Shown: piece after piece, positions 2,952 to 60,331 of the stretch
How the letters are laid out: each line of letters starts with the position of its first letter
Numbering within the stretch: the stretch's first letter is position 1
From: a virus
Strand: one strand, 5' to 3'
Length of the DNA: 64,000 bases
Virus record (IMG/VR): IMGVR_UViG_3300047562_003246
Span: 121,238-185,237 of that record
Notes under the pieces: model-generated
Told to the model about the DNA's origin: nothing
The model's input: only the letters and a program-made list of their open reading frames with translations
Databases searched by the model: none
Made by a program: the position numbers and the translations under genes

Positions 2952-3992
2952 ATGAATGTACCCGACAGGAAGTCTCGGGTCAAGAGCGTTCTCTCGCGAT
3001 CCGTCAAAGAATTCGAAGAAATACAAAAGATAACAGGAGCTAAAAACCTACCTAAGTTCGAACTGCTGATGCAAAACAAAGCACGAATTGTCCAGCAAAC
3101 CAAAGCTGTTCTAGAAGAATCTTGGAACAATAGACTAGATGCTATATACCGAGGCGACATAGCGGACTCCCGCATGTTTCCTATCAAAGAGTTTCACGAC
3201 AGACTCAACGATGTGGAACGCTGCTGCACAGAGTACACACGTTATGGTCCTGTGTTTGCGTGCCAGCAAAGTCTCGCATGTCCCATCTGTAACAGCCACG
3301 CTGCGTACGCTTTTGCTTCTCAAAGAACAGCGATGCTTTTTGAACAACTTGGAAAAGTAGATTACGTCAAAGTTTTCGAAATCGTAATTAACTTTGGCGA
3401 TGTGTACATGAGTTTTGCTCCAGAACGATTCGACGAACTTAGCCAAGTGCGAACAGACATACGAGACTTCTTCGCTAAACGCGATAAAGCTTTTCTGCTA
3501 CAGGGTTCGAAACGAGGCTATCCAAAAACGTATCGACTACTCGATATGTTCATTCACTCTGCACCGTCAACAGTAAACACGCAAATGATCTTCCCGCATC
3601 TGCATGTTGTCGGCGTACCTGTATCCACAAGAACAACGCTAGATGATTTTGTCGACGCAGTATACGCCGCTTGCAAAAACTGGAATATTCAGGCTGGGGT
3701 AAATTTTTCACCTTCAGAAACTTTCTACGCGAAAAAAGCTTCAGGCAAAAAAACAAAAAACACCAAAGACTTTTTCAGAAAGATGCACTACTTAGCGAGG
3801 TGTATTAAACCAAGTAGTCACAACGGTAATTCGTATCTGAGCACCGTGACAAGCGTACCTAGAATCTTGCGGCAGCGAACAAGTAAATCAGGTACCACAG
3901 TGAGCGAGCAATACCGAAAAATTAAAGCTGCTGGTAACGCCAAAATAATCGCTAGGTTTGATAGCCAGGTTTCACAGTTCCGAATAGTGTAG
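2952..3992 (+). CDS. Rolling-circle Rep-like protein (HUH endonuclease)
   Basis: A 346-residue protein with the hallmarks of plasmid Rep_1-type initiators. An HxH metal-binding motif occurs as FPHLHVVG (H216, H218), flanked by hydrophobic residues. An upstream Cys cluster (C104, C110, C113) resembles the conserved cysteines of Rep_1 proteins. A candidate catalytic tyrosine is Y280 in KMHYLARC. Known Rep proteins nick a double-strand origin and join covalently to the 5' end. Here the role is inferred: it could be a replication initiator, a relaxase or a captured plasmid gene. The stop codon TAG is part of a GTAGGATCCTGCGC repeat. Unusual in a phage with its own full replisome. Confidence 0.65.
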   Translation: MNVPDRKSRVKSVLSRSVKEFEEIQKITGAKNLPKFELLMQNKARIVQQTKAVLEESWNNRLDAIYRGDIADSRMFPIKEFHDRLNDVERCCTEYTRYGPVFACQQSLACPICNSHAAYAFASQRTAMLFEQLGKVDYVKVFEIVINFGDVYMSFAPERFDELSQVRTDIRDFFAKRDKAFLLQGSKRGYPKTYRLLDMFIHSAPSTVNTQMIFPHLHVVGVPVSTRTTLDDFVDAVYAACKNWNIQAGVNFSPSETFYAKKASGKKTKNTKDFFRKMHYLARCIKPSSHNGNSYLSTVTSVPRILRQRTSKSGTTVSEQYRKIKAAGNAKIIARFDSQVSQFRIV

Positions 3993-4002
3993 GATCCTGC
4001 GC
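3989..4002 (+). repeat. Interspersed 14-mer GTAGGATCCTGCGC, copy 1 (plus)
   Basis: Exact copy of the interspersed 14-mer. Its TAG (3990-3992) is the stop codon of the Rep-like gene. Confidence 0.85.
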
Positions 4003-4210
4003 AGTCGCTTAGGTAACTCAAAATGCGGCAGTCCTACTACTAATGGAAACAATTCCTCTAGGCGCGAAAAGTTTTTATAAAACAAATCGCGAATTTTCAA
4101 AATTTCATTGGGTTTTTTGGAACTTGTTCAGCAATCCCCATCAGGAGTATCTACCCTTGTCCACACAAACCTTCAGACACACGCACTCAAACCCACACAT
4201 CACTGCAATT

Positions 4211-4477
4211 ATGAAAGTAATAACCTCTTGGTCCACTGTGAAACCCAACGACCGAATCATCTGCAAAGTATCCGTATTCGAACCGACTCTTATCCCTGAT
4301 CAAAAACCCGGTAGTTGCTACTACCTCCGAATCACTTCAGTAAACCAAACCGATACTGACTTCGTCTTTGATACCCAGTACGAAAACCAAAACTTCGAAC
4401 CTATTCCAGGCTTAACCAAACTACTCACCATCCCGCTTGGCGAAGATAACCGCTTCATAGTTCTTCGTAAGCCGTAA
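4211..4477 (+). CDS. Hypothetical protein
   Basis: An 88-residue product from the ATG at 4211. The frame stays open upstream to 4043, but residues encoded there look non-coding, so the internal ATG is preferred. The likely protein is beta-rich, with many Thr, Asn, Gln and Pro residues, and has no recognised domain. Codons are strikingly C-ending and G-poor, like the neighbouring 4.1-5.3 kb stretch and unlike the rest of the window. No ribosome-binding site is evident. Could be part of a transferred block together with the adjoining genes. Confidence 0.45.
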   Translation: MKVITSWSTVKPNDRIICKVSVFEPTLIPDQKPGSCYYLRITSVNQTDTDFVFDTQYENQNFEPIPGLTKLLTIPLGEDNRFIVLRKP

Positions 4478-4508
4478 TGCTTTTAACTCTCGCACACAAA
4501 CTTGTAGC

Positions 4509-4783
4509 ATGCCAAAAGTAAACCAACCCAAATACGACATACCTACCGACCTACCAACCTACTGAATCTGCTTAAAGCAAACTGCTCTGTACACACAATC
4601 ATCCAGTACAAAAACGGACGCATCTGGCTTTACTGCCACAACCATGCCTACGATCACAACGGCGTACTCGCCGATAACTACCTGCGACAACTAATAAACC
4701 AGTTGCCTCCAGGCTCACTTGCAGGTCACGACAATAGCCCAGCACTGTTCAACCTCAGAAACAGACACGGCAAACGAATTTAG
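4509..4783 (+). pseudogene. Frame-broken small ORF
   Basis: An ATG at 4509 opens a frame of only 18 codons (stop at 4563-4565). The frame one base earlier is open from 4508 to the TAG at 4781-4783 and reads as a plausible protein (contains GRIWLYCHNHAYDHNG and LRQLINQLPPGSL) but has no start codon of its own. Joining both frames would give about 90 residues. This may be a decayed gene, a sequencing or assembly indel, or a minus-one frameshift gene. Composition is C- and A-rich like its neighbours. Confidence 0.35.
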
Positions 4784-4831
4784 CTCAGTAATCACTTTTT
4801 GTTCACTCCACTTAGTCCAGGATCAAACCAA

Positions 4832-6040
4832 ATGTCAACAACAACAAAAAGCAATCACCCACTCGCAGATCTGTGTCTACCAGTCGAACAACTCTACGCA
4901 GAAGACCACATCTACCAACTTGTATCCTCGCAAAAACTAATCCAAGCTATTCCGACTCTAGAACACTACATACCGCAAGTGCTATTCATGCACTCGAACC
5001 AACCAGAACTAACCAATCTGTACCTGCAGGCAATGCTGCTAAAGCACCAAAACCAAAATCTAGATTTAACTCAGCCACTTCAAAAACTTCACTTAACAGC
5101 CGAGCAGTTCAGCAAGCTCGATCAGTACATCGCCGTCATTCCTAAATGGGTCTACCCACCACAAACAAAAGCACTCAAAATGACAACGCCGCCTGATTGT
5201 CATCCAGTTGTCGAACCGATTTACCAGTTCGCGCAGCTTCTAGACATGCCTGCCTCGGGTACCTACGCCCAAGACTACATGGACGATCAGCAATACACGA
5301 TATTTATGCAAAGTCAAAAACCTGAAACGAGTCAATTCAAAAAACATCTGGTGACCAGGATCTTCGAAACACTCCACAACCAGTACGCTACAAACAATCC
5401 GGTTTACAGCAAAAGATATTTCTTGCGAACAGAAACAGATCTGGCACTGTACTCTTTACAGGGCTCCTCACGTATTACTGAAACCCAATTAAACACAGTA
5501 CAAGATTTGCTTTATGCAGAGAACGTACTGACCCGTAAAGAACATCTTATGGACTACCGGCCACTGAAGTTCATTCGGTTTTTGCTTGCAAGCAGACGCT
5601 ATTTCTGCTTTGAGTTTTATAGGGTTTCACTTCATCGTGTCTGGTCGAGTAACAATCCATCTTTGTTCAGCGAGATTGACTACTCGAAACCAGAGAAAAT
5701 TACACAGCAGTTATTTCATAACCTCGATAACATGCGTCAAGACTTCGAACTTGAAGTCACTTATGATCGTCAGAAATTTCATGAACTTACTACAGGAAAA
5801 ATCACTGCACAGCAAGCTGCAGAGACAACCCTGTCGGCAGATCTAGATGCTTATCCGGCAAATAATCTGACCGTGACTCTGCCGATGTGTACAGCCACAA
5901 CCAACGCAGTAGCCTTGCTGTTTAGTTTGGCGTCTCAGTTGCCTAAGTACACCATGTACCATTCGTACTTGGCTAAAGACTTCAAAACCCTTCAGCAAAA
6001 CCTGGAACAACCCACGATGACCGTAAGCTCCGTTTTGTAG
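4832..6040 (+). CDS. Hypothetical protein, C-rich coding strand
   Basis: A 402-residue protein of unknown function. The ATG at 4832 is preferred over a TTG 33 bases upstream because the intervening codons include a repeat-like CCAGGATC stretch and no ribosome site. The protein is rich in Gln, Leu, Thr and Tyr, appears soluble and mostly helical, with no P-loop, metal-binding or signal motif seen. The first 200 or so codons are strongly C-ending and G-poor; this fades toward the 3' end, so the composition changes inside the gene. The TAG stop lies inside a 20-bp perfect palindrome. Confidence 0.7.
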   Translation: MSTTTKSNHPLADLCLPVEQLYAEDHIYQLVSSQKLIQAIPTLEHYIPQVLFMHSNQPELTNLYLQAMLLKHQNQNLDLTQPLQKLHLTAEQFSKLDQYIAVIPKWVYPPQTKALKMTTPPDCHPVVEPIYQFAQLLDMPASGTYAQDYMDDQQYTIFMQSQKPETSQFKKHLVTRIFETLHNQYATNNPVYSKRYFLRTETDLALYSLQGSSRITETQLNTVQDLLYAENVLTRKEHLMDYRPLKFIRFLLASRRYFCFEFYRVSLHRVWSSNNPSLFSEIDYSKPEKITQQLFHNLDNMRQDFELEVTYDRQKFHELTTGKITAQQAAETTLSADLDAYPANNLTVTLPMCTATTNAVALLFSLASQLPKYTMYHSYLAKDFKTLQQNLEQPTMTVSSVL

Positions 6041-6052
6041 GATCCTACAAAA
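6033..6052. repeat. 20-bp perfect palindrome with GTAGGATCCTAC core
   Basis: TTTTGTAGGATCCTACAAAA is self-complementary over all 20 bases and is the symmetric form of the interspersed GGATCC repeat. It contains the stop codon (6038-6040) of the upstream gene and could form a cruciform or an RNA hairpin. Confidence 0.85.
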
Positions 6053-7044: not shown

Positions 7045-7990
7045 GTACCTGTATTCTGTAGCGCAGGATCCTACGACTAAAAGACTACGTGTCAACGCGA
7101 TTTACTTTCCAGAGATAGGCAATGGCCCTTGTGTACCTTGCGGGGTCGTACTTGTGCTCGACAAGTCCATGAGTAAGATCTCAAGGGCTGGGTTAGATCC
7201 GACTGTTCCGTTTGGTACCGTCAAGCTTTTGCCATTTGAGCAAAAAGAACCAGCAGCTGAAACAATCATGCTGACGCTGAATAGTTTCAGTTGCGAAGTT
7301 TTCCCAGAAGGTGAAATCAATTTCTTGATGGCGGCATCGGCATACGGACTAATCGTTTCGGCTCCCGAGGCTCAGCCGGTGGCAGAAGCTAAGCCAGAAA
7401 CCAAGAAGGGTAAGAAAGCCAAGGAAGAAGAAGTCGTCGAGGAAGAAGAGCTAACCGACGACGATGACCTGCAGGAAGAAGAGTCAGAAGAATCCGACGA
7501 TAGCGAAGATGCTGATGACGATGATGACTCGGATGATGATGACTCGGATGATGATGACTCGGATGATGATGACGCAGACGATGATGACTCGGATGATGAT
7601 GATGATTCAGATGATGATTCAGATGATGACTCGGATGATGACTCGGATGACGATGATGACTCAGACGATGATGATGAGTACGAAGAAGAGGATGATGACT
7701 CGGATGATGACTCAGATGATGATGACTCAGACGATGAAGATTCAGACGATGACGATTCAGATGATGATGACGACGATGCTGATGCTGATGATGAGGACGA
7801 AGAGATTGTGGAGTTCACCCCAGCAGAACTTAAGAAGATGCTGAAGAAGGTTAAGAACGCCGCAACAGTTAAGGTCCTCGAAGACATCGCCGAAGAGTTG
7901 GGAGAGGAGCTTCCAGCCAACGTCAAGTTGCCGAAGGCAAAGAAGCTTTTGATCGCAGTGATTGAAGGCGAGTTAAGCGCTGAAGAGTAA
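6980..7990 (+). CDS. Asp/Ser-rich acidic low-complexity protein
   Basis: A 336-residue protein in three parts: a folded-looking N-terminal domain (about 1-130), a linker with a Lys cluster, a very acidic tract (about 150-275) built mainly of DDDS-like units, and a short C-terminal helical domain (about 280-336). The ATG has a good AAGGA site six bases upstream despite the 65-base overlap with RNase H. The acidic tract could mimic DNA or recruit basic replication proteins; this is inference. An interspersed 14-mer (7061-7074) is read in frame as AQDPT. A strong terminator follows. Confidence 0.85.
   Translation: MPKKGSTKAPKKLDPKSVEPNKYLYSVAQDPTTKRLRVNAIYFPEIGNGPCVPCGVVLVLDKSMSKISRAGLDPTVPFGTVKLLPFEQKEPAAETIMLTLNSFSCEVFPEGEINFLMAASAYGLIVSAPEAQPVAEAKPETKKGKKAKEEEVVEEEELTDDDDLQEEESEESDDSEDADDDDDSDDDDSDDDDSDDDDADDDDSDDDDDSDDDSDDDSDDDSDDDDDSDDDDEYEEEDDDSDDDSDDDDSDDEDSDDDDSDDDDDDADADDEDEEIVEFTPAELKKMLKKVKNAATVKVLEDIAEELGEELPANVKLPKAKKLLIAVIEGELSAEE
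7061..7074 (-). repeat. Interspersed 14-mer, copy 2 (minus)
   Basis: Exact reverse-complement copy (GCGCAGGATCCTAC) inside the acidic-protein gene, read in frame as AQDPT. Confidence 0.85.
7495..7790 (+). repeat. Low-complexity GATGAT/GACTCG coding repeat
   Basis: Imperfect tandem arrays of GAT, GAC and TCG/TCA codons encoding runs of Asp and Ser in the acidic protein. The region is likely prone to slippage and length variation. Confidence 0.8.
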
Positions 7991-14809: not shown

Positions 14810-16376
14810 TCTCAAACTAATCGAAGTTAGATCTTTATTTGCGTCATTGATTAGGGATCAAAAATTATTTTTGGTAGCTAAGTCTCGACTAGATTCGAAC
14901 TCATTTGCAGAGAACCAAGAAGGCATCAAGATCATCTGGGAGCAGCTGATTAGTTTGTATTCCAAGTACAAAAAAATGCCAAAGGTCTCTCAACTGAGGG
15001 CAGCTATTATTGCCTTTGTAGACGAAACAGACAATGACGACGAAGACATGCAGGATGAAGTCGGTGAGATTCTAGATCTAGCTGAGTCCTTCGATCGTGT
15101 TGACTTAGCTTCGCAGCGAAATGAAAACCGTAGGATCCTGCGCATCTTTTTGGATATTGCGGTAGCCCGAGAACTCAGGGAAAACCTTGAGCTGCAGGTC
15201 AAGCCGACAAGTTTGATGCGAGACGCGATGAATCGTATCGCGGTTAATAAAAGCGTTGAAACTGGTGCGTTCAAAAACTGGTTTGGTTCTTTGGAAAGTG
15301 CGGTCTCGGAAGCCAAGGTTCGTATCTTTGTGACAGGGCAGGCTCTTGTCGATGAGCTGACCAACGGCGGTCCACGAGGCGGCGAGTGTCTGCTACATAT
15401 GGGAGCGATCAACAGCGGTAAAACAACGCTGGCGGTTGACGTGGCTGTGTCTCGGGCTTTCTATGAATACTTCGCAGCGCAGAAAGAAAATCGTAAACCA
15501 GGAGTTGTTTCGTTTTATTCTTACGAAGAGTCAAGACAGGTCTTTGCTCAGGTATTAACCCGAGCATCGAACGTGAGTTTTAACTCCATCGATAAGTACA
15601 TGGAGACCCAAGATATCTCTGTGCTTAGCTCTTCGAAGAGAAAAGATTACAAGGGTTACGAAAGAGCTTGGAGGAAGATAGGAGGTAAATCGTTTGATGG
15701 AGAAGAAGAACGACTCAAGAAAGCTTTTGAAATCCTAAAGGTCTGTTTCAACTTTGTGGCAATGTCATCAGAGGATCCAAGTAACGGTGAATTGTCTGGT
15801 GAATACGTCGATGGTTTGGTACAACATTATGAGTCTTATCTAGCTGCGACAAAAGCAAAGCCTGACTTGATCGTTATAGATCACGCTTCAGCAATGGTCG
15901 AGCGGTATATGTTTGAGAACGGTAAAGGTAAAGATGAGCGACGGCACTTATTAAAAACACTGTCGATGCTGCTTAAAGATAAACTTGCCGCTCCGTATCA
16001 GGTTCCTATTTGGTGCTTGCATCAGCTTGGTTCCGAAGAAAATAGACGACCACCTGGAACTGTACCAGAACCAGCCAGCGGATCTGAATGCCGCATGATG
16101 CACGAATTTTTTAGTTTCGCGCTACAAAGCAGTCGAGTTACTGAGCCAGATAAGATTGGCGTAGTGGCTCTTGGTAAAAAGCGACGTATGAAAGGTGCTG
16201 ATCATATTGCTTTTCAAATCGACGGTGAGTTTAGTCGCTGGAAAGATGCAAGATCTACCCACGCAATCCAAGGCGGTAAAGTAAGAAGCATCGAAGACGC
16301 CAAGAGAATTGTTGACTCAGAGAGCGTTAACAGTGGTACAGCCGCGTTTACACCAAGGAGAAGGATGGTTAAATGA
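14781..16376 (+). CDS. DnaB-like replicative helicase
   Basis: Hexameric 5'-3' fork helicase of 531 residues. An N-terminal helical domain (about 1-170) precedes a RecA-type motor: Walker A GAINSGKT at about 208-215, Walker B LIVIDHAS near 363 and the DnaB H4-like segment CLHQLGSEENRR near 413. Size matches T4 gp41 and DnaB proteins. Its stop overlaps the primase start (ATGA), consistent with a helicase-primase pair. An interspersed 14-mer at 15130-15143 is read in frame as RRILR in the N-terminal domain, with no disruption of motor motifs. Confidence 0.9.
   Translation: MAKQLAKSNSLKLIEVRSLFASLIRDQKLFLVAKSRLDSNSFAENQEGIKIIWEQLISLYSKYKKMPKVSQLRAAIIAFVDETDNDDEDMQDEVGEILDLAESFDRVDLASQRNENRRILRIFLDIAVARELRENLELQVKPTSLMRDAMNRIAVNKSVETGAFKNWFGSLESAVSEAKVRIFVTGQALVDELTNGGPRGGECLLHMGAINSGKTTLAVDVAVSRAFYEYFAAQKENRKPGVVSFYSYEESRQVFAQVLTRASNVSFNSIDKYMETQDISVLSSSKRKDYKGYERAWRKIGGKSFDGEEERLKKAFEILKVCFNFVAMSSEDPSNGELSGEYVDGLVQHYESYLAATKAKPDLIVIDHASAMVERYMFENGKGKDERRHLLKTLSMLLKDKLAAPYQVPIWCLHQLGSEENRRPPGTVPEPASGSECRMMHEFFSFALQSSRVTEPDKIGVVALGKKRRMKGADHIAFQIDGEFSRWKDARSTHAIQGGKVRSIEDAKRIVDSESVNSGTAAFTPRRRMVK
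15130..15143 (+). repeat. Interspersed 14-mer, copy 3 (plus)
   Basis: Exact GTAGGATCCTGCGC inside the DnaB-like gene, read in frame as RRILR. Confidence 0.85.
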
Positions 16377-22381: not shown

Positions 22382-24010
22382 GTGCCTAAGAAAATACTAA
22401 GGACCAGACTAATGCAGAAGAAGAAAAAAACCTTGGGTAGTTTGATTGCAGAAAATAATGCAGAGAAGCCGAAGGTGAAGCGTAAAAGAGGCTTGACAAG
22501 ACCCGATAGAACTGTTGCAGAAGAGCCGAGAGAAGACTTCGTAGAGCAAGAAGAAGAAACTGAAGAGGTACCAGCGAGAAAGAAGAAGCGCGCAGGATCC
22601 TACGCAAAACCGATCGTAATGGATTTGGATGATATTAATAAAGCCAGCCTGTTGCCCGGCAAGTCGGATAAAAAACAGCCAGCTGCCTTGAAAAAGATTA
22701 AAGACAAGAACACCTATTTCTTGTACTTACAATCAAGCATGACATCTGCGTCTGAAAATTCGATTGTGTCTGTTCGAGGTACAGCTTCGCGTGCGCACCT
22801 TGTGATGCCACTGCCGCTGCCGCTACAAATAACGATGCAGGTCAACGGTATACCGTATGGAACTTTTATTGAAGTTGCCGGTGACAAGGGTTCGCTTAAA
22901 TCATCGTTTGTGCTCGGGATGGCGAGAATATTCAACGGGTTTGATTACTCGTTACCTGACCATATAGGTTTTGCTGACTATGTTTCCAACGAGTCAAAAT
23001 ATCCCGATGGCCTAGTTAGTGCAATCTGTGGCTACGAGGATGAGCATTTGGCTTTGCGTCCAGATAGCCTGTACGCCGTCAAGGCTCATCGCAGCGGATC
23101 GATGAACGAATGGCAAAAGATCATTCTTTCTCGACTTAAAGAGTACGAGAAGTTGGCTGACCCAAAACGCGGCTTGCCCTACTTGATCATTCTTGACAGT
23201 ATTACTGCAAAATTGTTGGATTCGACAGCAAAAAAGATTGTCAAAGAAGGTATGGCGGATCGAGCGTTTTCGATTGAAGCAGATTCTATACGCCGGTTCA
23301 TGGCAACTGTCATGAATAAGATCGAAGATTATCCGATCGTGTTTATGGGAGTTAATCACGTCAGGCGTGACAAAGAAATTGGTAAGTTTGCGGAAGTCAG
23401 GTCAAAACCAGGAGGACGCTACCTGAGTTATCAGGAGATTTTTGACCTAGACATGAAGCAGTTCAAGAAGCCCTGGAAGATTAACTCGCCAGATAACATT
23501 GATTATGCGTTTATTCATATGAACGCAACAAAGCTAACTGTGGAGAAAAGTTCTATCGGGCAGACTTTTAATTCCTGCGTACTGTATTACTCGTATACGT
23601 ACTCAAACTACTGTGAAATGCCAGATGGCTCTATTATCGCATTTAAGAGTAAAGATCCGCACGTCAAGCTCAGACAGCGAAGTAAATGGGAATGGGGCAG
23701 GTCGCTTTGTAATAAGATTGCTACGGCATCAAAAGATATTGTTGGAAAACAAAGAGCGAAACTCAACGATGTCTGTCGTGTAGACGCGGCTAATGAGCTT
23801 GTAGCTACGTGCAAGCAAATATCGAAAGTCGCGATGGATTCAGAGAAGCTAGGACGATTGATTATGCAGGATGAGCGAATGTGTGAGAAGATCGCAGATA
23901 TCTTTGCTGTGCAGCAATATCCGGTTTACGAACCAGGCACAGACTACTGCGGAATAAGAGGTATCGAACGGAAAAAGAAAAGTGCTAAGGAGCTAAGCGA
24001 TAGTGAGTAA
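22382..24010 (+). CDS. RecA/UvsX-like recombinase
   Basis: Strand-exchange ATPase of 542 residues. A basic, acidic-patched N-terminal extension (about 110 residues) precedes the RecA core. The P-loop reads GDKGSLKSS near 167, where Leu replaces the usual second Gly of GxxxxGK[ST]; the Lys and Ser are kept. Walker B LIILDSITA is near 268 and a motif-3-like GVNHVRRDKE near 323. T4 UvsX also departs from bacterial RecA, so activity is plausible. An interspersed 14-mer (22590-22603) is in frame as AGSYA in the extension. The stop overlaps the next gene. Confidence 0.82.
   Translation: MPKKILRTRLMQKKKKTLGSLIAENNAEKPKVKRKRGLTRPDRTVAEEPREDFVEQEEETEEVPARKKKRAGSYAKPIVMDLDDINKASLLPGKSDKKQPAALKKIKDKNTYFLYLQSSMTSASENSIVSVRGTASRAHLVMPLPLPLQITMQVNGIPYGTFIEVAGDKGSLKSSFVLGMARIFNGFDYSLPDHIGFADYVSNESKYPDGLVSAICGYEDEHLALRPDSLYAVKAHRSGSMNEWQKIILSRLKEYEKLADPKRGLPYLIILDSITAKLLDSTAKKIVKEGMADRAFSIEADSIRRFMATVMNKIEDYPIVFMGVNHVRRDKEIGKFAEVRSKPGGRYLSYQEIFDLDMKQFKKPWKINSPDNIDYAFIHMNATKLTVEKSSIGQTFNSCVLYYSYTYSNYCEMPDGSIIAFKSKDPHVKLRQRSKWEWGRSLCNKIATASKDIVGKQRAKLNDVCRVDAANELVATCKQISKVAMDSEKLGRLIMQDERMCEKIADIFAVQQYPVYEPGTDYCGIRGIERKKKSAKELSDSE
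22590..22603 (-). repeat. Interspersed 14-mer, copy 4 (minus)
   Basis: Exact reverse-complement copy in the RecA-like gene, read in frame as AGSYA. Confidence 0.85.
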
Positions 24011-24566
24011 CATGGACCCCATGCGATTTCTTGCGAAGAAAAAAGATCTCCGCAGGAAAAACTCAGCTGGTCTCGACGGCAAGGGTATCGCCGCCAGGAT
24101 GAACGTCAACTTGGCAATCAAGCACATATTCCAAGGCGCTGAAAGGCCGGAGTTATTGAGAGCTTGTTGGCGTTATGCAGAGGACGCAGGAAGAGACTAT
24201 TTGAAGTTTGAGGATATGGACCAGTTCTTAGGCACGTTTATGCGGTTCAAGCTTCTGACAGAGAATAAAGCCAGCACAGGTATCCTCAACGCAGTCGGAC
24301 ACTATCTGGACGGGTTCCCTAAGAAACTCATTAAGAATTACGAAGACTGGTACAAGGAATGTGAGGATACGACGCCAGAGGCGATACCCATTATTGTGCT
24401 CAAGCTACCTAACCTAAAGTGCCAAATGGGCGTTTTGAGGGAAGGTGCTTTGGGTACTGATACTGCGGGTAGCAGTGGTATCGTGTACGTTAGCGAAGAA
24501 GCTAGCTATGTGCTGCAGTCGTGCAGGGCGTTTGGAGCAGAGATAGCGGGCTACTTGAATCAGTAG
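24003..24566 (+). CDS. Hypothetical protein downstream of recA-like gene
   Basis: A 187-residue protein starting at a GTG that overlaps the RecA-like stop by eight bases; an in-frame ATG at 24012 is an alternative. It is basic at the N-terminus and helical through the middle, with no recognised motif. Tight coupling to the recombinase suggests a recombination accessory role, perhaps a mediator, but this is contextual only. Its TAG stop (24564-24566) is formed by an interspersed 14-mer. Confidence 0.7.
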   Translation: MSNMDPMRFLAKKKDLRRKNSAGLDGKGIAARMNVNLAIKHIFQGAERPELLRACWRYAEDAGRDYLKFEDMDQFLGTFMRFKLLTENKASTGILNAVGHYLDGFPKKLIKNYEDWYKECEDTTPEAIPIIVLKLPNLKCQMGVLREGALGTDTAGSSGIVYVSEEASYVLQSCRAFGAEIAGYLNQ

Positions 24567-24576
24567 GATCCTGCGC
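24563..24576 (+). repeat. Interspersed 14-mer, copy 5 (plus)
   Basis: Exact copy. Its TAG is the stop codon of the upstream gene and it ends 14 bases before the next ATG. Confidence 0.85.
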
Positions 24577-27264: not shown

Positions 27265-27697
27265 TACAGAAGCAGGGCTGGTAGTCGCTAGCAAGCCGAA
27301 GACAGATCCTCGATTTATCGATCTGGCTAAGAACGGTTTGAAAGTTAAACGAGTAAAGAAAGATTTATATCTTGAGTTGTTCAGTAATGCACAGTTTGTA
27401 GGTTCTATTAGCGTAGGATCTTACAAAAACGTTGCAGAAGCTAGAGCAGCAGAGTGCTTAGCAGAACTAATCATCGCTACGATGATGGCGGCTATTCCTA
27501 TTGATAGCATGCAGGAAGCTTTTGATAACATCAGAAATGGACTACAAGCTGCCAACATCGGTGTTCCTGTAGGTAACGAGCCCAGGACATTCAATCAGGA
27601 TATTGATCCGACTTATTCGTTTTCTTACTACGATCAGCAGAAGGATGCCATCATCGCCGGTGAGGTAAACCTTTTCGCTGAAATTCACAGGGCTTAG
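27224..27697 (+). CDS. Hypothetical protein
   Basis: A 157-residue protein, helical in the middle with Ala-rich segments (EARAAECLAELIIATMMAAI). Starts at 27224 overlapping the previous gene, or at an in-frame ATG at 27239. A degenerate copy of the interspersed repeat (GTAGGATCTTAC, 27413-27424) is read in frame as VGSYK. No function recognised. The next gene begins seven bases after its stop, consistent with an operon. Confidence 0.65.
   Translation: MTSYLMEQSTTPNNTEAGLVVASKPKTDPRFIDLAKNGLKVKRVKKDLYLELFSNAQFVGSISVGSYKNVAEARAAECLAELIIATMMAAIPIDSMQEAFDNIRNGLQAANIGVPVGNEPRTFNQDIDPTYSFSYYDQQKDAIIAGEVNLFAEIHRA
27413..27424 (+). repeat. Degenerate GTAGGATCCTAC-type site
   Basis: GTAGGATCTTAC differs by one base from the perfect 12-bp palindrome core and is read in frame. 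Listed as a probable diverged member of the family. Confidence 0.45.
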
Positions 27698-34834: not shown

Positions 34835-36726
34835 AACACTTTGCGTGTCCAGATGACGTTTACAGTGGATTCTCTCGAAGCAATTTTTCAAGGGCAAGAG
34901 GTAAGCATCCTTACCCGTTCTTGGATCCAGCAAGCCAGGCTAGTCCTCGGACTTGGCGAGAAATCCACGAATGGGGATCACTCTGTATCGAACGCTCCCC
35001 TGAATTTGTTGACGCGCATAGAAAGCTTTATTCTTATTTCAACACTAGGCTTAAGTTTGCTTCATCTACATCGGACGATCAGCAGCTCTCTAGCGATGAA
35101 GAGCGAAATTTGTCCGACATGTTCGAGAAGAAACTTAACTACAGTGCTAACGTACTGCAGCTAGGAATCAGTGTTGCAGCTTATGGTTCGCAGATAGTGA
35201 CCATACAGCGAAAATGTCAGCGCAAGTTGGTTTGTCCGCATCCAGAATGTGGTGCGGTGATCGACATGCTGACCGGTGCAAGAGAGATGAAGATTGATTT
35301 CAGGTATGACTACAATTCCTGTAAATTTCTTTATCGATGTCCTGCCGAAGGTTGCCCTAACAGACGAGCCCTTGTCCCTGCGATCGTCAAAGATTGGTAT
35401 CGCAAAGACATTGATTCGTTGACGATTAAGCAGTGGCCACCTGACGAAATGCTAATCGATTATTACCTGTGGACAGACACGGATGACATCTATTGGCGTA
35501 TACCTGAGTATTACAAGCAGGCGGTTCGCCGGGGACACCTGGAGACGTTAGCCGAAGCTGATCTAGATGTACTCAAAGCGATTCGCGGCAATAATCTGTT
35601 TAGGTTTTACCGCGATCGAGTTTTTCACGCTAAGGAAATGAGTATCGCTGGGTTAGGTTTGCGAGGAAGAGGATTACCGAGATCGCTTTTGCTTGGACCG
35701 CAAATCTACATGCTGCAGGTATTTAGGCATCAAAACCAAATACTTGGTATGGACTACCTTTTACCTATGGGCATCTTTTCTCTGGATGATACGCCCAAAG
35801 GCGTTGAATATTCTGGTCCACAAAGTTCGCTTAATCTTGGGCAATTTTCTAATGATATTAATCGTGCTTTGGCGGCGCATCGAGAGGATCCTACGCAGCG
35901 GTTTGCGTTTCCCTACGCTCTTCGCTATCAGATTGTCGGCGGCGAAGCTAGTCAGTTGGCTCCCGTACAGTTAATTGAAAACAGCAAAGCAGACGTATAT
36001 GAAGGTGCTGGTGTTCCGCTTGAGATGTGGCGAGGATCTCTATCGATTCAAGTGATGCCTGTAGCTGCGAGGCTTTATGAGGCGTCTCACAAGACGATAC
36101 CAACTTTGTTCAATCGATTTGCTGGTTTTGTCGCTAAACGAGTGTCGGAAGATTTAGAACGAGATCCGTTCGACGCTTATCACGAAGAAAGCACAATTGT
36201 TGCGGACATCCAGAAAATGGCTGTTGTTTCGCAAGGTGTGCAGCTTGGTCACACCAGTCGTGGGTTACTCTACGAAAGTTTCGGTATCGATTCGGATATC
36301 GAGCGAGATCGTCGTATCGACGAATTGCTTGCCGACGCAAGAGCGGAACAGAAGTTGCAGAAGAAGCTGGAAAGTGAGCAACTTACCTTACAAATGCAGG
36401 CCATGCCGCAACCAGTGGGCGCGCAGGATCCTACAGCCGCGCAACAAGGCGGACAAGCACCTGAGTCAGCGATGCCGCCAAACATGGCACCTTCTCAAGG
36501 TTTGGCTGTAGCCAACATGAGCATCCAGCAGCTAGGAGCCGAAGCGGAGCGTATAGCTGCTCAATTGATTGACCCGTCTTTGCCGCAGGCTCAGGTTAAT
36601 CAACAGTTGGCGATGGTGAAGTCACAAAGTCCAGAGCTTCATAGCTTGGTTCGTCAAGCAATGGATAAAATGAGACAACAGGCTGCAGCACAAGGGCAGC
36701 ATGCCGTGTTATCTGGACAAGTATAG
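34831..36726 (+). CDS. Portal protein
   Basis: Forms the dodecameric ring at the head vertex through which DNA is packaged and ejected. The 631-residue product has portal-like organisation: an N-terminal helical/beta region, a central stretch with the conserved feel of portal cores (LPRSLLLGPQIYMLQVFRHQ near 290, then GVPLEMWRG near 395), and a long Gln/Ala-rich helical C-terminal tail (about 500-631). An insert at about 128-180 has CPHPEC and CPAEGC pairs plus other Cys, like a zinc ribbon. Repeats at 35886 and 36421 are in frame. Assignment rests on pattern and length. Confidence 0.78.
   Translation: MKHFACPDDVYSGFSRSNFSRARGKHPYPFLDPASQASPRTWREIHEWGSLCIERSPEFVDAHRKLYSYFNTRLKFASSTSDDQQLSSDEERNLSDMFEKKLNYSANVLQLGISVAAYGSQIVTIQRKCQRKLVCPHPECGAVIDMLTGAREMKIDFRYDYNSCKFLYRCPAEGCPNRRALVPAIVKDWYRKDIDSLTIKQWPPDEMLIDYYLWTDTDDIYWRIPEYYKQAVRRGHLETLAEADLDVLKAIRGNNLFRFYRDRVFHAKEMSIAGLGLRGRGLPRSLLLGPQIYMLQVFRHQNQILGMDYLLPMGIFSLDDTPKGVEYSGPQSSLNLGQFSNDINRALAAHREDPTQRFAFPYALRYQIVGGEASQLAPVQLIENSKADVYEGAGVPLEMWRGSLSIQVMPVAARLYEASHKTIPTLFNRFAGFVAKRVSEDLERDPFDAYHEESTIVADIQKMAVVSQGVQLGHTSRGLLYESFGIDSDIERDRRIDELLADARAEQKLQKKLESEQLTLQMQAMPQPVGAQDPTAAQQGGQAPESAMPPNMAPSQGLAVANMSIQQLGAEAERIAAQLIDPSLPQAQVNQQLAMVKSQSPELHSLVRQAMDKMRQQAAAQGQHAVLSGQV
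35886..35894 (-). repeat. Partial interspersed repeat (GGATCCTAC half)
   Basis: AGAGGATCCTACGC keeps the GGATCCTAC half of the family but not the full 14-mer; it is read in frame in the portal as EDPTQ. Confidence 0.5.
36421..36434 (-). repeat. Interspersed 14-mer, copy 6 (minus)
   Basis: Exact reverse-complement copy in the portal C-terminal tail, read in frame as AQDPT. Confidence 0.85.
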
Positions 36727-41128: not shown

Positions 41129-42344
41129 AAAGAAAAAGAAGAAAAAGAAACGTTTGGTTATTACACAGCCTAACCTTCCTTTTGAGTCTCCAGCGCAGGA
41201 TCCTACAAAACCTGCTGAGTCTTCTGAGACCGCCAGAATAATACGACGCAAAAAAGGTAAACGTCGTAAGAAAGTAAAGGTTACGACCGCCCGAGTGCCT
41301 AAAGAGCGAACAGAAGTCACTCTCGATAAAGAGGCACTAGCTAATGGTGTTAAAAGTCTATCAATGCGTGGCCGAGCTTACAGATTGTCGTTAGGGCATC
41401 TGGGCTCATCAAGAGTAGCCACTGAAGCTGAACGCGGACGTATTCTCCGCGAAGATGTAGACGCACTAAGTGTGCGCAAGAATTTGTTTCATCCGGATGA
41501 TCCGTTCATTAAGCAATTACGATCAGGGCAAGTAAGAATCCGAGATAGGTTCTTTGCCCTGACGCTGGCTCATCCGGAAAAAGCAACAAGACTGTTCGTT
41601 GCTAAGAATCCGAAAATGCTTGACCAGTCGAAAAAGAACTGGGAAGACATGACGGAGCAGGAAATCGAAGAAGAAATGGCAAGTCAGCTTGACCTATTCC
41701 ATAAAGAGATGCAAGAAATTATCGACAACTATACGGCAACTGAAGTTCAGGCTGTGATCGATAATTATGACGCTATCTTGAGCGCTGCCCGTGAGCACTT
41801 GGAAGATCTTTTCGATCCGCAACAGTATGTGACGAAGGGCGACCTGACTCGTTGTCTTTACGTAGAGTTTCATCCGGTACCATCTGTGCTACCGCCTGAG
41901 TATTCTCGTATCGATCCGACGATGCAAGCTCGCGTAGCTAATTATCTACGCGAACAATTAGAGTCTGCTCTGGCTATACAGCTCGAACAGATCGAACAGT
42001 CTTTAACTGAGTCGATCAGTGGACTGGCTGAGCGTGTGTCTTCTATCAGCAGCGACAGTACTCAACGGTTCTACCAAAGCCGTGTTGAGAATGTTTTCAC
42101 TGCAATACAGGACTACGAAAAGGTAGTGCAGTCTCTTGGTATCACGTTTGGTGAATCACTAGGTCAACGACTGACGAGCATTCGTGCTTCGCTCAATCAA
42201 GCTGGTGATAATCCGAAACAGATCATCGAGCGAATGCGTACGAACGAGAATATCCGAAAGGATATTCTTAGTAACTTGAACGAAAGCCTTTCACAGGTCG
42301 AGTTGGCTTTCGAGCCAGTTCGCCGCCGGGTTAAAATTGACTGA
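41097..42344 (+). CDS. Hypothetical protein, helical with basic N-terminus
   Basis: A 415-residue protein. A TTG at 41097 with CAGGAAAAAA upstream is the likely start, overlapping the AAA gene by 32 bases; an upstream TTG at 41010 would overlap by 118. The first 80 residues are extremely basic with Lys runs and include an in-frame repeat (AQDPT). The remainder is helical and coiled-coil-prone (Glu/Gln/Leu-rich, about 200-400). Could be a structural or scaffold-like protein; not recognised. Confidence 0.65.
   Translation: MSANEESLIRRKKKKKKKRLVITQPNLPFESPAQDPTKPAESSETARIIRRKKGKRRKKVKVTTARVPKERTEVTLDKEALANGVKSLSMRGRAYRLSLGHLGSSRVATEAERGRILREDVDALSVRKNLFHPDDPFIKQLRSGQVRIRDRFFALTLAHPEKATRLFVAKNPKMLDQSKKNWEDMTEQEIEEEMASQLDLFHKEMQEIIDNYTATEVQAVIDNYDAILSAAREHLEDLFDPQQYVTKGDLTRCLYVEFHPVPSVLPPEYSRIDPTMQARVANYLREQLESALAIQLEQIEQSLTESISGLAERVSSISSDSTQRFYQSRVENVFTAIQDYEKVVQSLGITFGESLGQRLTSIRASLNQAGDNPKQIIERMRTNENIRKDILSNLNESLSQVELAFEPVRRRVKID
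41193..41206 (-). repeat. Interspersed 14-mer, copy 7 (minus)
   Basis: Exact reverse-complement copy in the basic head of this gene, read in frame as AQDPT. Confidence 0.85.
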
Positions 42345-45227: not shown

Positions 45228-45241
45228 GTAGGATCCTGCGC
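45228..45241 (+). repeat. Interspersed 14-mer, copy 8 (plus)
   Basis: Exact copy in the intergenic gap, four bases after one stop codon and 13 bases before the next ATG; it replaces the usual ribosome-site position there. Confidence 0.85.
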
Positions 45242-51800: not shown

Positions 51801-53271
51801 GTTTATGGAGCTACTTAAGGTCGCAGGTATTAATCCGCTTAGGCAAGGCACCAAGACAACGCTGACACCTATGACAGATGACGAGATTGATAGATCAGCA
51901 GGTAACCGTGAGATACAGAACGCTGAGACGCTAGATCTTTACAAAGATCAATCGCCTATCAAAGGTGGATTATTTGATCCAACTATTTTTGGTATGGGCG
52001 ACAGACCTGCCAAGATGTCTTTATCTGTAAAGCTACCCAACCCAGCTTACGAGGAGCCACTGCGCAGGATCCTACAGCTCAAACAAAAAGAGTACTCGGA
52101 TCTGATTGCAGGTAAGCATCAATTAGGCAATCACGGTACTGGTACAAAAGCTATCGAAAGTTTCTTGAGTAAATTTGATATTGATCAAGAAATTGAAAAA
52201 GCTCGTACAGAAATTCGTGGCACTAAAAAGCTAGCTCGGGATGCTGCGGTAAGGCGGTTGGGATTCTTGCGAGCGATGAATAATCTCGAAGTTAACCCAA
52301 GCGATCTGATGCGAGAAAAGATTTTGGTGCTGCCGCCTAACCTGCGACCAGTTTCAGTTATCGGTCAAGGTAAGAAACAAGTGCCAATCGTCAATGATTT
52401 GAACTATCTATACAGGGAAGTCTTTGAGGCGAACAAAGTTTACAAAGACTTAGCATCTCAGCTTGGAGATGATAACGCAGGTGACGAAAGGTTGATGTTG
52501 TACGAGGCAACGAAAGCGCTCAGTGGTTACGGCGAATCGACTGACAAAGAACTACGTAGTCGTAACGTAAAAGGTGCTTTGCGTACACTTCTGCCAGGAG
52601 GACCTAAAGCTAGCTACATGCAACAAAAGCTCATAGGTAACACTGCTGACGTAGCGGGTCGTGGTGTTGTGATACCTAATCACAAACTTGGCATGGACGA
52701 GGTGGGTATTCCTAAAACAATGGCCTGGGATATTTTCTCTAACCATGTCGTACGAGAACTTGTTCGCGGCGGTATGCCTATTTTGCAGGCCAGAGAATCC
52801 GTTGTTAATAAATCGGATAAAGCCTATAAAGCTTTGCAGTCCGTTCTAGAGAAAGTACCTGTCATGGTCAGTAGAGACCCTGCACTGCACCAATACAACA
52901 CGATTGGGCAGTATGTGAAACTAGTTGATGGTAATGCGATTCAGTCGAATCCGCTAATCAACAAAGGACTTAATCTTGATCACGACGGCGACACTATGTC
53001 AGTACACGTACCGATTACAAAAGGTGAAATTGATAACCTGAAAAAGCGATTGATGCCGAGCAAAATGCTTATATCTCCATCTGATATGGAGTCAGTAGTT
53101 TACGCGCCAAACCAAGACTTTACGCTTGGTGTTGCACTAGCTTCGCTCAAACGTAGTAATGTGAAAAGTTCAAAAGTGTTTATGACGTACGCCGATGCTG
53201 AAAGAGCAGCGAAGCGTGGCGAAATTTCCTGGCACGATCCTGTGAGAATATTGGAGAAAGATCAAACATGA
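48856..53271 (+). CDS. RNA polymerase beta/beta-prime (RpoB-RpoC1-like) fusion subunit
   Basis: Catalytic RNA polymerase polypeptide of 1471 residues. Beta-like landmarks: FIFNGSR near 115, YEDAYVVSE near 648 (RpoB EDA-V-SE), GDKITMRNGLKG near 779 and FDAVIPRLGVISRKN near 810. Beta-prime-like landmarks then follow in the same chain: KGGLFDPTIFG near 1036, VNDLNYLYREV near 1175, GNTADVAGRGVVIPNHKLG near 1260 and the catalytic NLDHDGD at 1373-1379 with D1375, D1377 and D1379. It ends about 90 residues later, where cyanobacterial RpoC1 would end. Bridge helix and trigger loop are absent, so a second subunit must exist elsewhere. A repeat at 52062 is in frame. Confidence 0.9.
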   Translation: MSQEDITQQSPVQPAVTFRDVTDPVQTREALYGGVLKALQELPPAESKTHQLTLGNVRYMEEDNDDEDQQELAMDTRTTLGRRIKGTWNLINKSTGQVVDSKEQVLGVVPRVTDNGSFIFNGSRYAFGLQQRINPGSYARVKANGELEALVNVARSTGARHRYLLDPETEQISFNVQNSKIPVADVLEILGATQEDAAAAWGPELAETNWKKRDPKALNKLYEKLVNKSGGDLDDTQKAEAVRAAFARMKTDRLVNQRTIGIDTDAVDKTTVLASTKRILDLLRGQVEADDRDHAAFQTYYSPEDILAERLKLDAGKIRRNLLYKAQRSNSLSSLPTRPLDAQFQSAVFDSGIGQLMDAPNPLDIIDRMSRMTVYGDGGIGSQDSTPDSTRFVNHSYTGIMDGLRTVESSRVGADTFIASGAKKGSDGQLYFDAIDAKTQKPVTVSASNMFGKTVTLSKKPDLGKYYIVQKDGKLDYALPEEIDYFLPDVEKTYNHLSNLVPGKSLMVPNRVAMATRMSAQAVELANKEAPLFQNAVPGTNGQVSFEDVYGDRLGVKRAPQVPGTVISVSDKEIEYLTVDGTKGKVKLYSDATLGRKSRMHNTPTVKVGDKFEPGQILATSNFTDNNGTVAIGTNLRVADMTFPDTYEDAYVVSESAAKNKLASVQLYRTRLESNATQARDKKSFVSVFAGKFKPDQLEKLDDDGIVKVGQTVEHGDPLVLAMERRQGVGRVHKKGGASFKDSTLVHDHEDPGTVVGVFKDKQGNTVVKTRVISPLKEGDKITMRNGLKGTVVVKPDSEMPRDKEGNVFDAVIPRLGVISRKNPVVKHELALSKIAAMRGQPYKIPDFGEIEDMNEFTRGELKKYGISDKETVVDPFTGQDVKGVVTGYAFFNKLHHFSEAKAQGRSTGRYTADAMPAKGGDDLGKSKRIGLLAQHALLAGGGHEFIRGTGLVRGQANSEFWQAFMRGDDPPTPKVPERYKKFMELLKVAGINPLRQGTKTTLTPMTDDEIDRSAGNREIQNAETLDLYKDQSPIKGGLFDPTIFGMGDRPAKMSLSVKLPNPAYEEPLRRILQLKQKEYSDLIAGKHQLGNHGTGTKAIESFLSKFDIDQEIEKARTEIRGTKKLARDAAVRRLGFLRAMNNLEVNPSDLMREKILVLPPNLRPVSVIGQGKKQVPIVNDLNYLYREVFEANKVYKDLASQLGDDNAGDERLMLYEATKALSGYGESTDKELRSRNVKGALRTLLPGGPKASYMQQKLIGNTADVAGRGVVIPNHKLGMDEVGIPKTMAWDIFSNHVVRELVRGGMPILQARESVVNKSDKAYKALQSVLEKVPVMVSRDPALHQYNTIGQYVKLVDGNAIQSNPLINKGLNLDHDGDTMSVHVPITKGEIDNLKKRLMPSKMLISPSDMESVVYAPNQDFTLGVALASLKRSNVKSSKVFMTYADAERAAKRGEISWHDPVRILEKDQT
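52062..52075 (-). repeat. Interspersed 14-mer, copy 9 (minus)
   Basis: Exact reverse-complement copy in the RNA polymerase gene, read in frame as RRILQ, about 35 residues after the KGGLF motif. Confidence 0.85.
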
Positions 53272-58642: not shown

Positions 58643-59662
58643 ATGAGCAAGCCCGTTAAACGAGTCAAGAGCCCTATCAAGTGGCCGGGAGGTAAGTTTT
58701 ATCTTGCACCAAAGATCATAAGTTTTATTCCAAATGATGTGCAGTTTTTCTTTGAAGGATATTGCGGCGGCATATCTGTACTGCTAGCTAAGCTGCAATA
58801 TGGTAGCGAAGTTATCGTTGATGCCAACAAGTACATCACGAACTTCTGGACAGTACTTGCTGACAAAAAGTTATTTCAGCAGTTCTCGCGTTTAGCGGAA
58901 GCAACGCCTTTCTCAGATAGTATTTTCAAAGCGAGCCTTGAAAACTACAAATCAGCAAAGATACGAGATAAACCAGACGTGCAAGCTGCGTTAGACTTTT
59001 TCATTCTGTGCAGAATGTCACGTCAAGGCTTGATGAAGGATTATGCTACGCCTACGTCAAGACTACGCAGAGGCATTAACGAAAACGTGTCAGCATGGCT
59101 TTCCAGTGTTGACGGACTTGCGGAAGTACACAACAGACTTAAAACTGTTGAGGTACTAACAGGCAGCACGCTTGATTATCTGTTTAAGTACAGCAATAAA
59201 AACTCGCTGCATTATTTAGATCCTCCGTACATGCATGCGACTCGCGTAAGTAGGAAAGACTATCAAGCTTTCGAAATAAGTGACAGGCATCATGCAGTCT
59301 TGCTGGCAGGTCTAATGCCGTCGCATGAGCCGTTACTAACAAAGAAAGAGTTTGAAGCTTATGCTGGTAACGAGCAGTATTCTCAGTATGAGGAATTTTC
59401 TCGTAAAGATTTTCCAGGTAAGTTCATACTCAGCGGCTATAACAATCCGCTGTACGAAAAGTACACAGAAAAGTTTGAACTTCGCGTAGAAAAGATAGCA
59501 GTGCCTAATAACGCAAGCTCAGCAAAGATCAAAGAGATCAAAACAGAATGCTTGTGGATGAATTTTGGTCAAGAGATAAGTAGTGCTACACGGCAAGAAT
59601 CAGCCGAAAAGGTTATCTCCAAAAAGATCAAACGTAGGATCCTGCGCAAAGTAAAGAAGTAG
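58643..59662 (+). CDS. dam: Dam-type DNA adenine methyltransferase
   Basis: Transfers a methyl group from S-adenosylmethionine to adenine N6, likely protecting phage DNA from host restriction or marking it. The 339-residue product shows the MboI/Dam order: WPGGKF at 14-19 (SAM binding), FFEGYCGG near 36-43 and the catalytic LDPPY at 192-196. Similar to M.MboI and T4 Dam (about 260-290 residues) but longer, with a basic C-terminal tail partly made of a repeat-encoded RRILRKVKK. If it recognises GATC, every copy of the interspersed GGATCC repeat would be a target; specificity is not shown. Confidence 0.9.
   Translation: MSKPVKRVKSPIKWPGGKFYLAPKIISFIPNDVQFFFEGYCGGISVLLAKLQYGSEVIVDANKYITNFWTVLADKKLFQQFSRLAEATPFSDSIFKASLENYKSAKIRDKPDVQAALDFFILCRMSRQGLMKDYATPTSRLRRGINENVSAWLSSVDGLAEVHNRLKTVEVLTGSTLDYLFKYSNKNSLHYLDPPYMHATRVSRKDYQAFEISDRHHAVLLAGLMPSHEPLLTKKEFEAYAGNEQYSQYEEFSRKDFPGKFILSGYNNPLYEKYTEKFELRVEKIAVPNNASSAKIKEIKTECLWMNFGQEISSATRQESAEKVISKKIKRRILRKVKK
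59634..59647 (+). repeat. Interspersed 14-mer, copy 10 (plus)
   Basis: Exact copy at the 3' end of the methylase gene, read in frame as RRILR and supplying part of the basic tail, 15 bases before the stop. Confidence 0.85.
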
Positions 59663-59668
59663 ATTTAT

Positions 59669-59713
59669 TAAACTAAAGCTGTATAGATACCTAGTTTATT
59701 GTGAGACAGCTTT
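59669..59713 (+). promoter_or_regulatory. Competing hairpins before the zinc-finger gene
   Basis: Two overlapping inverted repeats: AAAGCTGT (59675-59682) with ACAGCTTT (59706-59713), whose right arm ends directly at the ATG; and TAAACTA (59669-59675) with TAGTTTA (59692-59698). They cannot both fully form, and no Shine-Dalgarno is visible, so translation may be structure-controlled. Inference. Confidence 0.4.
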
Positions 59714-59956
59714 ATGTTTGGTGAATACTTCAATGATGGACTAGACGCTGAGTTTGGCGATTTACTAGGCTCAGCTAGGTTTTGCTGCGAGCTATGCGGG
59801 CAGTATTCAGATGACGTTGTTTCTTGTAATCGGTGCGGCTCGCTAGTCTGTGGTGATTGCTCTCAGGTTGTAACTATTAACGCGTTATATGGAGACAAAA
59901 TACAGGTTCAGGTGTGTGTTGATTGTTTATCGGAGGTAGCGGTTAAAGCTACTTAA
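59714..59956 (+). CDS. Cross-brace zinc-finger protein
   Basis: An 80-residue protein with four Cys pairs (CELC, CNRC, CGDC, CVDC), evenly spaced as in FYVE/RING-type or B-box cross-brace zinc fingers that bind two zinc ions. An acidic N-terminal 25 residues precede the finger. Such compact zinc domains mediate protein-protein contact; the partner is unknown. ATG immediately follows an inverted repeat that may control its translation. Two-zinc binding is inferred from spacing only. Confidence 0.75.
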   Translation: MFGEYFNDGLDAEFGDLLGSARFCCELCGQYSDDVVSCNRCGSLVCGDCSQVVTINALYGDKIQVQVCVDCLSEVAVKAT

Positions 59957-59979
59957 ATTTCTTTCTTTAAAGGTTCACA

Positions 59980-60321
59980 ATGAGTACTCTCAAAAAGTTG
60001 AAAAACGCACAGAGGCATCAAAAACTTCGAACTGGGATTATCCGGATTGAGATCGCTAAAGCGCACAATCAAGCTGCAAAACGTATTCTCGAAACCACCG
60101 CAGCGGATCTGAGCAAAGACAAGCTTGTCAAGATGATTCTTTGGTCCATGAAGAGCAGAATCAATATGTCGGAAGTGCATGTGATCGCAGAAAGTATTGT
60201 CCGCAAGATTCGAGATGACATCATGCGAAACTCACAAGTCTCCGGCAGTCAGCTCATTACTGGCTTTACCTCTGAGGCTGTACTGCATTACAGCGAGACT
60301 CAGCAAGTTCAAGTTGCGTAG
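59980..60321 (+). CDS. Hypothetical basic helical protein
   Basis: A 113-residue basic, strongly helical protein with AAAGG upstream of the ATG. No motif recognised. The first half is Lys/Arg/Gln-rich and the second half mixes helix with a polar end. The TAG stop (60319-60321) is supplied by an interspersed 14-mer. Lies downstream of the zinc-finger gene by 23 bases. Confidence 0.6.
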   Translation: MSTLKKLKNAQRHQKLRTGIIRIEIAKAHNQAAKRILETTAADLSKDKLVKMILWSMKSRINMSEVHVIAESIVRKIRDDIMRNSQVSGSQLITGFTSEAVLHYSETQQVQVA

Positions 60322-60331
60322 GATCCTGCGC
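60318..60331 (+). repeat. Interspersed 14-mer, copy 11 (plus)
   Basis: Exact copy whose TAG is the stop codon of the upstream gene. Confidence 0.85.

What the first reader, a model, noticed from the sequence alone, without database searches (positions are those of the whole stretch)
3989..60331. Interspersed 14-mer GTAGGATCCTGCGC, 11 exact copies in both orientations
Eleven exact copies in 64 kb (six plus: 3989, 15130, 24563, 45228, 59634, 60318; five minus: 7061, 22590, 36421, 41193, 52062), with related sites at 6033-6052, 27413 and 35886. A random 14-mer should almost never occur twice here. The GGATCC core is palindromic and the flanks are alternative half-sites (TAC or TGCGC). Copies sit in frame inside replication, portal, RNA polymerase and methylase genes, recurring as AQDPT or RRILR/RRILQ. 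This resembles cyanobacterial HIP1 iterated palindromes in style but is a different sequence. It could be a protein-binding, packaging, recombination or methylation site, or an expanding palindromic element.
Basis: seen in the sequence. Interest (0 to 1): 0.88.

Follow-up and report, generated by a model that had tools for sequence, protein, structure and literature searches.

The report
Evenly spaced DNA motif in phage
A large, otherwise unknown bacterial virus carries the same 14-letter DNA word 30 times, spaced about every 6,000 letters along its genome regardless of genes or direction, which suggests it is a landing site for an unidentified protein that handles the whole viral chromosome.

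Summary
Confirmed, and it extends to the whole 185-kb phage record: 30 exact copies of GTAGGATCCTGCGC (10 plus, 20 minus), where Markov models expect under 0.001. Only two one-mismatch copies exist and GGATCC is not enriched elsewhere, so the full asymmetric quasi-palindrome (Y)GTAGGA|TCCTGCGC is what is kept. Selection acts on DNA: every AQDP in the predicted proteins is spelled by the same 12 bases, and copies also occur in other frames, at stop codons and between genes. The RNA polymerase copy arose by substitution, not insertion. Sites avoid coding sequence and favour disorder-prone stretches.

The new finding is spacing: the copies form an unusually even array (mean 6.2 kb; none of 20,000 random placements as even), and plus and minus copies interleave into one array (rotation P=0.003). 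Nine distant relatives have no copy; IMG/VR and (with a partial query) GTDB genomes show no similar array. I propose docking sites for an unidentified phage DNA-binding protein acting genome-wide; nicking or recombination sites remain possible. HIP1, stoperators, T5-type nick sites and ParB/Noc sites each fail a tested feature. Binder, host and close relatives are unknown.

The parts
3989..4002 (+). exact 14-mer; supplies the TAG stop of ORF 2952-3992
7061..7074 (-). exact 14-mer; reads AQDPT in ORF 6980-7990
15130..15143 (+). exact 14-mer; reads RRILR in DnaB-like helicase ORF 14781-16376
22590..22603 (-). exact 14-mer; reads RAGSY at aa 70 of UvsX-like recombinase ORF 22382-24010, ahead of the matched domain (aa 140-436)
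24563..24576 (+). exact 14-mer; supplies the TAG stop of ORF 24003-24566
36421..36434 (-). exact 14-mer; reads AQDPT at aa 531 of ORF 34831-36726 (putative portal protein; alignments to relatives end at or before aa 527)
41193..41206 (-). exact 14-mer; reads AQDPT in ORF 41010-42344
45228..45241 (+). exact 14-mer; intergenic, 4 bases after one ORF and 7 before the next
52062..52075 (-). exact 14-mer; reads RRILQ in RNA polymerase ORF 48856-53271; gap-free in alignment with six relatives
59634..59647 (+). exact 14-mer; reads RRILR in the C-terminal tail (about aa 331 of 339) of the Dam-family methyltransferase, outside the homologous aa 8-308
60318..60331 (+). exact 14-mer; intergenic in my gene calls; supplies the TAG stop of short ORF 59980-60321 if that ORF is real
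6033..6052 (.). TTTTGTAGGATCCTACAAAA, symmetric (T/T type) relative and perfect 20-bp palindrome; supplies the TAG stop of ORF 4799-6040
27411..27424 (-). degenerate relative GTAAGATCCTACGC (2 mismatches)
35883..35896 (+). degenerate relative AGAGGATCCTACGC (3 mismatches)
58643..59662 (+). D12-class / Dam-family N6-adenine DNA methyltransferase (likely GATC; GATC is the centre of the motif); a link to the motif is only a possibility

Best explanation
The 14-mer (15 with its pyrimidine at -1) is a strict recognition site on double-stranded DNA for one sequence-specific protein, most likely encoded by this phage. It is used as an evenly spaced, orientation-blind array of about 30 docking points, one per about 6.2 kb, for a process acting on the whole genome rather than on single genes: most likely organising or anchoring the replicating phage DNA (as Noc, MatP or ParB sites do for bacterial chromosomes). 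Shown here: strictness, DNA-level selection, origin of one copy by substitution, placement where proteins tolerate it, and even spacing across both orientations. Inferred: that a protein binds it, that the phage encodes that protein, and the genome-handling role.
For: 30 exact against 2 single-mismatch copies, and no enrichment of GGATCC outside the sites. Asymmetry is kept: T/C 30, T/T 2, C/C 0; -1 is a pyrimidine in 29 of 30. No other conserved flank and no partner motif within 250 bases. Spacing CV 0.48-0.49 against about 1.0 for random placement, including placement that keeps the coding/non-coding split: 0 of 20,000 as even. Rotating plus copies against minus copies gives an array as even in only 0.3% of shifts, and coding against non-coding in 2.5%, so all copies behave as one array. 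Orientation differs between coding (3+/17-) and other sites (7+/3-), p=0.005, as expected if orientation is set by coding tolerance. Fewer sites lie fully in genes than expected (20 of 30 against 90%, p=5e-4); coding sites prefer the AQDPT reading (12 of 20, p=1e-4) and disorder-prone flanks (P=6e-4). AQDP is encoded by identical codons 12 of 12 times while AQD elsewhere uses eight different spellings.
Against: No binding protein was found: no ParB_N domain, and about 90 of 190 predicted proteins scanned in one or more libraries gave no clear candidate. No close relative exists in the data searched, so conservation of site positions could not be tested. Noc, SlmA and MatP sites as generally described are more symmetric and more degenerate than this. 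The record may be incomplete or circular; the spacing tests assume one 185-kb molecule. The tests are post hoc and rest on 30 points.
Confidence: 0.4

Rival explanations
1. Nick (single-chain interruption) sites: a phage nickase cuts one strand at each site in the packaged DNA, as in T5, phiKMV-like and tf-like phages.
For: T5's major-nick consensus is R/GCGCRGG (PMC3517423) and every 14-mer reads GCGCAGG on one strand; the T5 nick annotated at 9748 falls exactly on GCGCAGG. Known nick motifs are strict and dispersed.
Against: Known nick motifs lie on one strand only and cluster in part of the genome; here both strands carry them (20/10) and together they form one even array. The base before GCGC is not constrained to purine (12 of 30). 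GCGCRGG outside the 14-mers is not common (11 copies). No T5 homologue other than DNA polymerase was found by sequence, though T5's nicking proteins were not individually identified.
Confidence: 0.2
2. Recombination or replication signal (Chi-like or HIP1-like): the site regulates a nuclease, recombinase or replication restart, so one is needed every few kilobases.
For: The phage encodes SbcC-like, UvsX-like, helicase and RNase H proteins and a weak metallo-phosphoesterase (SbcD-like) match. Even spacing fits a processivity limit. HIP1 has a GATC centre and associated GATC methyltransferases; here a Dam-family methyltransferase is present.
Against: Chi is short and directional (general knowledge); here orientation appears not to matter. 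The HIP1 ratchet model predicts abundant one-off sequences; here there are 2, and GGATCC is at background.
Confidence: 0.17
3. Transcription roadblocks (stoperators): a phage repressor binds the dispersed asymmetric sites and stops elongation.
For: About 30 copies of a short asymmetric dispersed site; several copies sit at gene ends or just before genes.
Against: Stoperators predominantly share one orientation relative to transcription (PMC6550527); here 10 of 30 point with and 20 against an almost entirely plus-strand gene set, and orientation follows coding status. Even spacing is not expected of control of transcription units.
Confidence: 0.08
4. Decoy or mimic of a host site: the phage carries sites of a host DNA-binding protein to titrate or recruit it.
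For: No phage binder was identified; the host is unknown.
Against: TTT+14-mer gave only six single hits in about 85,000 species genomes, so no held genome looks rich in it; a host with few or degenerate sites would be missed.
Confidence: 0.08
5. Mobile or copied short element inserted through the genome, or a library/assembly artefact (the motif holds a BamHI site, as primers often do).
For: Copies are identical with unrelated flanks.
Against: The RNA polymerase copy aligns without gap to six relatives; all 20 fully coding copies keep reading frames open with a strong frame preference; random insertion or adapter contamination would break frames and would not be evenly spaced.
Confidence: 0.04

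Closest known systems
HIP1, highly iterated palindrome of cyanobacteria (GCGATCGC; PMC4390886)
   Same: Short iterated motif with GATC at its centre, inside genes, with a Dam-type methyltransferase in the same genome.
   Different: 14-15 bases, asymmetric, all-or-none (no enriched core, few one-off copies), evenly spaced at 6.2 kb, in a phage.
Stoperators of Cluster A mycobacteriophages (PMC6550527, PMC9283540)
   Same: Asymmetric short site dispersed through a phage genome.
   Different: Stoperators keep one predominant orientation relative to transcription; here orientation is free and spacing even.
Nick-associated motifs of T5, phiKMV-like and tf-like phages (PMC3517423, PMC11780129)
   Same: Strict dispersed motif; shares GCGCAGG with the T5 consensus.
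   Different: Known ones lie on one strand and are unevenly spread; here both strands, even.
Noc-binding sites of Bacillus subtilis (PMC4331003) and, from general knowledge, MatP, SlmA and ParB sites
   Same: Dispersed near-palindromes that act genome-wide.
   Different: No ParB_N protein found here; this site is asymmetric and stricter; about 70 Noc sites on a whole bacterial chromosome against 30 in 185 kb.
Chi sites (general knowledge; introduction of PMC4390886)
   Same: Exact short word every few kilobases, within genes.
   Different: Chi is shorter and directional.

Membership tests
HIP1 / HIP-type iterated palindrome | GCGATCGC or another perfect palindrome | tested here: not met
   Site is asymmetric beyond AGGATCCT; symmetric T/T type only 2 copies, C/C none.
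HIP1 / HIP-type iterated palindrome | One-off sequences abundant (ratchet model of PMC4390886) | tested here: not met
   Two one-off copies against 30 exact; GGATCC outside sites 33 against 35 expected.
HIP1 / HIP-type iterated palindrome | Associated methyltransferase of the core | tested here: inconclusive
   Dam-family methyltransferase encoded; its specificity is not testable here.
Stoperator | One predominant orientation relative to transcription | tested here: not met
   10+/20- on nearly all-plus genes; orientation tracks coding status.
Stoperator | Bound by a phage immunity repressor that stops transcription | not testable with these tools
   No candidate repressor recognised; about 100 proteins not scanned.
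T5/phiKMV/tf-type nick site | All sites on one strand | tested here: not met
   Both strands, interleaved into one array.
T5/phiKMV/tf-type nick site | Single-strand break in virion DNA at the site | not testable with these tools
   Needs virion DNA.
T5/phiKMV/tf-type nick site | Matches T5 consensus R/GCGCRGG | tested here: inconclusive
   GCGCAGG present in every copy, preceding purine not conserved.
ParB/Noc binding site | Cognate ParB_N-domain protein encoded with the sites | tested here: not met
   No PF02195 match in the record at E<=10; a host protein or diverged fold is not excluded.
Chi site | Directional action on a recombination nuclease | tested here: inconclusive
   Orientation appears free; function not assayed.

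The most novel reading that the evidence does not exclude
A virus-encoded DNA-binding protein organises a large phage genome through an evenly spaced, orientation-blind array of strict sites: a genome-architecture system that I know of no precedent for in phages, detectable from sequence alone by its even spacing.
Probability: 0.33. Interest if true: 0.88.

Novelty: new variant of a known kind. Interest (0 to 1): 0.7.

Why it matters
Dispersed strict motifs in phages (nick sites) and bacteria (HIP1) still have unknown functions. Here the spacing itself carries a signal: two orientations, and coding and non-coding copies, fit one even array, which points to a whole-genome role and against gene-by-gene control. 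The prediction is simple to test (find the binder, look for nicks, recode the sites), and an evenness test could find similar arrays in other large phage genomes.

Tried and rejected
Protein-level selection for AQDPT (rejected: invariant codons, other frames, intergenic and stop-codon copies). GGATCC as a methylation or restriction site (not enriched outside the sites). Insertion element and adapter artefact (RNA polymerase alignment, open frames). Gene-bound promoter or terminator role (mixed orientation, mostly inside genes; not tested further). RNA element (Rfam gave nothing in the window; both orientations occur within plus-strand genes). Partner motif within 250 bases (nothing significant after thousands of tests). 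Close relatives: single-protein scans of IMG/VR with terminase, DNA polymerase and RNA polymerase found none; a terminase alignment found ten distant relatives, of which seven, plus Arash and D181, have no copy; the six relatives read in full and T5 have no comparable dispersed 12-mer. IMG/VR scans with T or C before the 14-mer gave 13 single hits each; the 17 of those records that I searched whole have one copy each. A second insertion test on the DnaB-like helicase failed for want of alignable relatives. A literature search for the core word GGATCCTGCGC gave 18 papers, and the eight listed are unrelated.

Full report
Observation. The window is the last 64 kb of a 185,237-base virus record, which holds 30 exact copies, 10 plus and 20 minus, with none of the reversed control word. 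Markov models fitted to the site-masked genome expect 0.0006-0.0008 copies.

Anatomy. Lining up the copies shows no conserved flank except a pyrimidine at -1 (29 of 30). The site is a quasi-palindrome with unequal halves, YGTAGGA and GCGCAGGA. Mixed T/C sites number 30, symmetric T/T sites two (one of them the 20-bp palindrome at window 6033-6052) and C/C sites none. Only two copies carry one mismatch, and GGATCC outside the exact sites is at background, 33 against 35. The whole 14-mer, not its core, is therefore what is maintained.

Level of selection. Twelve of the 20 fully coding copies read AQDPT, and all 12 AQDP tetrapeptides in the predicted proteins are spelled identically, whereas other AQD tripeptides use eight spellings. 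Further copies read RRIL, AGSY or VGSC, supply stop codons, or lie between genes. Coding sequence is avoided (20 of 30 fully coding against 90% expected, p=5e-4), the AQDPT reading is preferred (p=1e-4), and the flanking protein is disorder-prone (P=6e-4). In the RNA polymerase gene, the only site inside an alignable conserved region, RRILQ aligns without gaps to RSMLD, KHLLG, RALLG and the like in six relatives. That copy arose by substitution. The copies in the methyltransferase and the putative portal protein lie in tails outside the conserved regions.

Spacing. Gaps run from 684 to 11,858 bases with mean 6,188; the coefficient of variation is 0.48-0.49. None of 20,000 class-preserving random placements was as even (P=5e-5 for uniform placement). 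Plus copies alone are not unusual (P=0.28), minus copies are (P=0.006), and rotating one set against the other reproduces the observed evenness in 0.3% of shifts; for coding against non-coding sites it is 2.5%. Orientation differs between coding (3+/17-) and other sites (7+/3-; p=0.005). The simplest reading is a single array in which orientation is set by what the encoded protein tolerates and spacing by the function. These tests are post hoc and rest on 30 points.

Distribution. The closest annotated phages are Salmonella phage Arash and Vibrio phages D181, D148 and D69 at about 25-30% protein identity. Arash, D181 and seven long IMG/VR relatives have no copy. None of the six relatives read in full, nor T5, has a comparable dispersed 12-mer; the best are late-promoter-like TATAAGTA words, AT-rich words and a GCCCCGAAGGGC hairpin-like word. 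IMG/VR scans with T or C before the 14-mer returned only single hits. The GTDB scan used a TTT prefix that only 8 of 30 phage copies have, and returned six single hits; a host with few or differently flanked sites would have been missed.

Mechanism. A strict, asymmetric, orientation-blind and evenly spaced site set argues for a genome-wide role of a DNA-binding protein, such as anchoring, segregating or condensing the replicating genome. The main rival is nicking: T5's nick consensus R/GCGCRGG is contained in the 14-mer, and the annotated T5 nick at 9748 falls on GCGCAGG. A chance match of seven bases to one of several motifs compared is quite possible, and the single-strand rule of nick sites fails here. 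A recombination or replication signal is also open; the phage has UvsX-like, SbcC-like and helicase genes. A Dam-family methyltransferase is encoded and GATC is the centre of the site, so methylation could modulate binding; this is speculation, as 913 other GATC sites exist.

Limits. Genes were called by a simple codon-usage script. About 100 of 190 predicted proteins were not scanned against any family library. The host is unknown, and completeness of the record is not established.

Noticed in passing
whole record G000 (window included): GGCGCC occurs 0 times, GAGCTC once and AGGCCT once, against roughly 9-35 expected each; likely avoidance of host restriction sites and a possible clue to the host.
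   Followed up: partly
window 7520-7710: In-gene imperfect repeat of GATGATGACTCGGATGATGA, an acidic Asp/Ser-rich stretch in ORF 6980-7990.
   Followed up: no
G000:64540-64658 (L006:4540-4658): Five- to six-copy 21-bp tandem repeat around CACTGGTGGTGGCAGTCAAAG inside ORF G000:62913-65201.
   Followed up: no
G000:68656-69738 (L006:8656-9738): Subtilisin-like serine protease whose strongest match is to mycosin-type proteases, below the curated cut-off.
   Followed up: no
L023/L025-L027 (Salmonella phage Arash) and G005 (L074-L083): CAAACGTTGTAACC occurs 10 and 7 times, in both orientations, clustered in five 2-kb bins; possibly an origin iteron or operator.
   Followed up: no
window 18-1955: The terminase large subunit is one of very few genes on the minus strand in an otherwise almost all plus-strand genome.
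   Followed up: no
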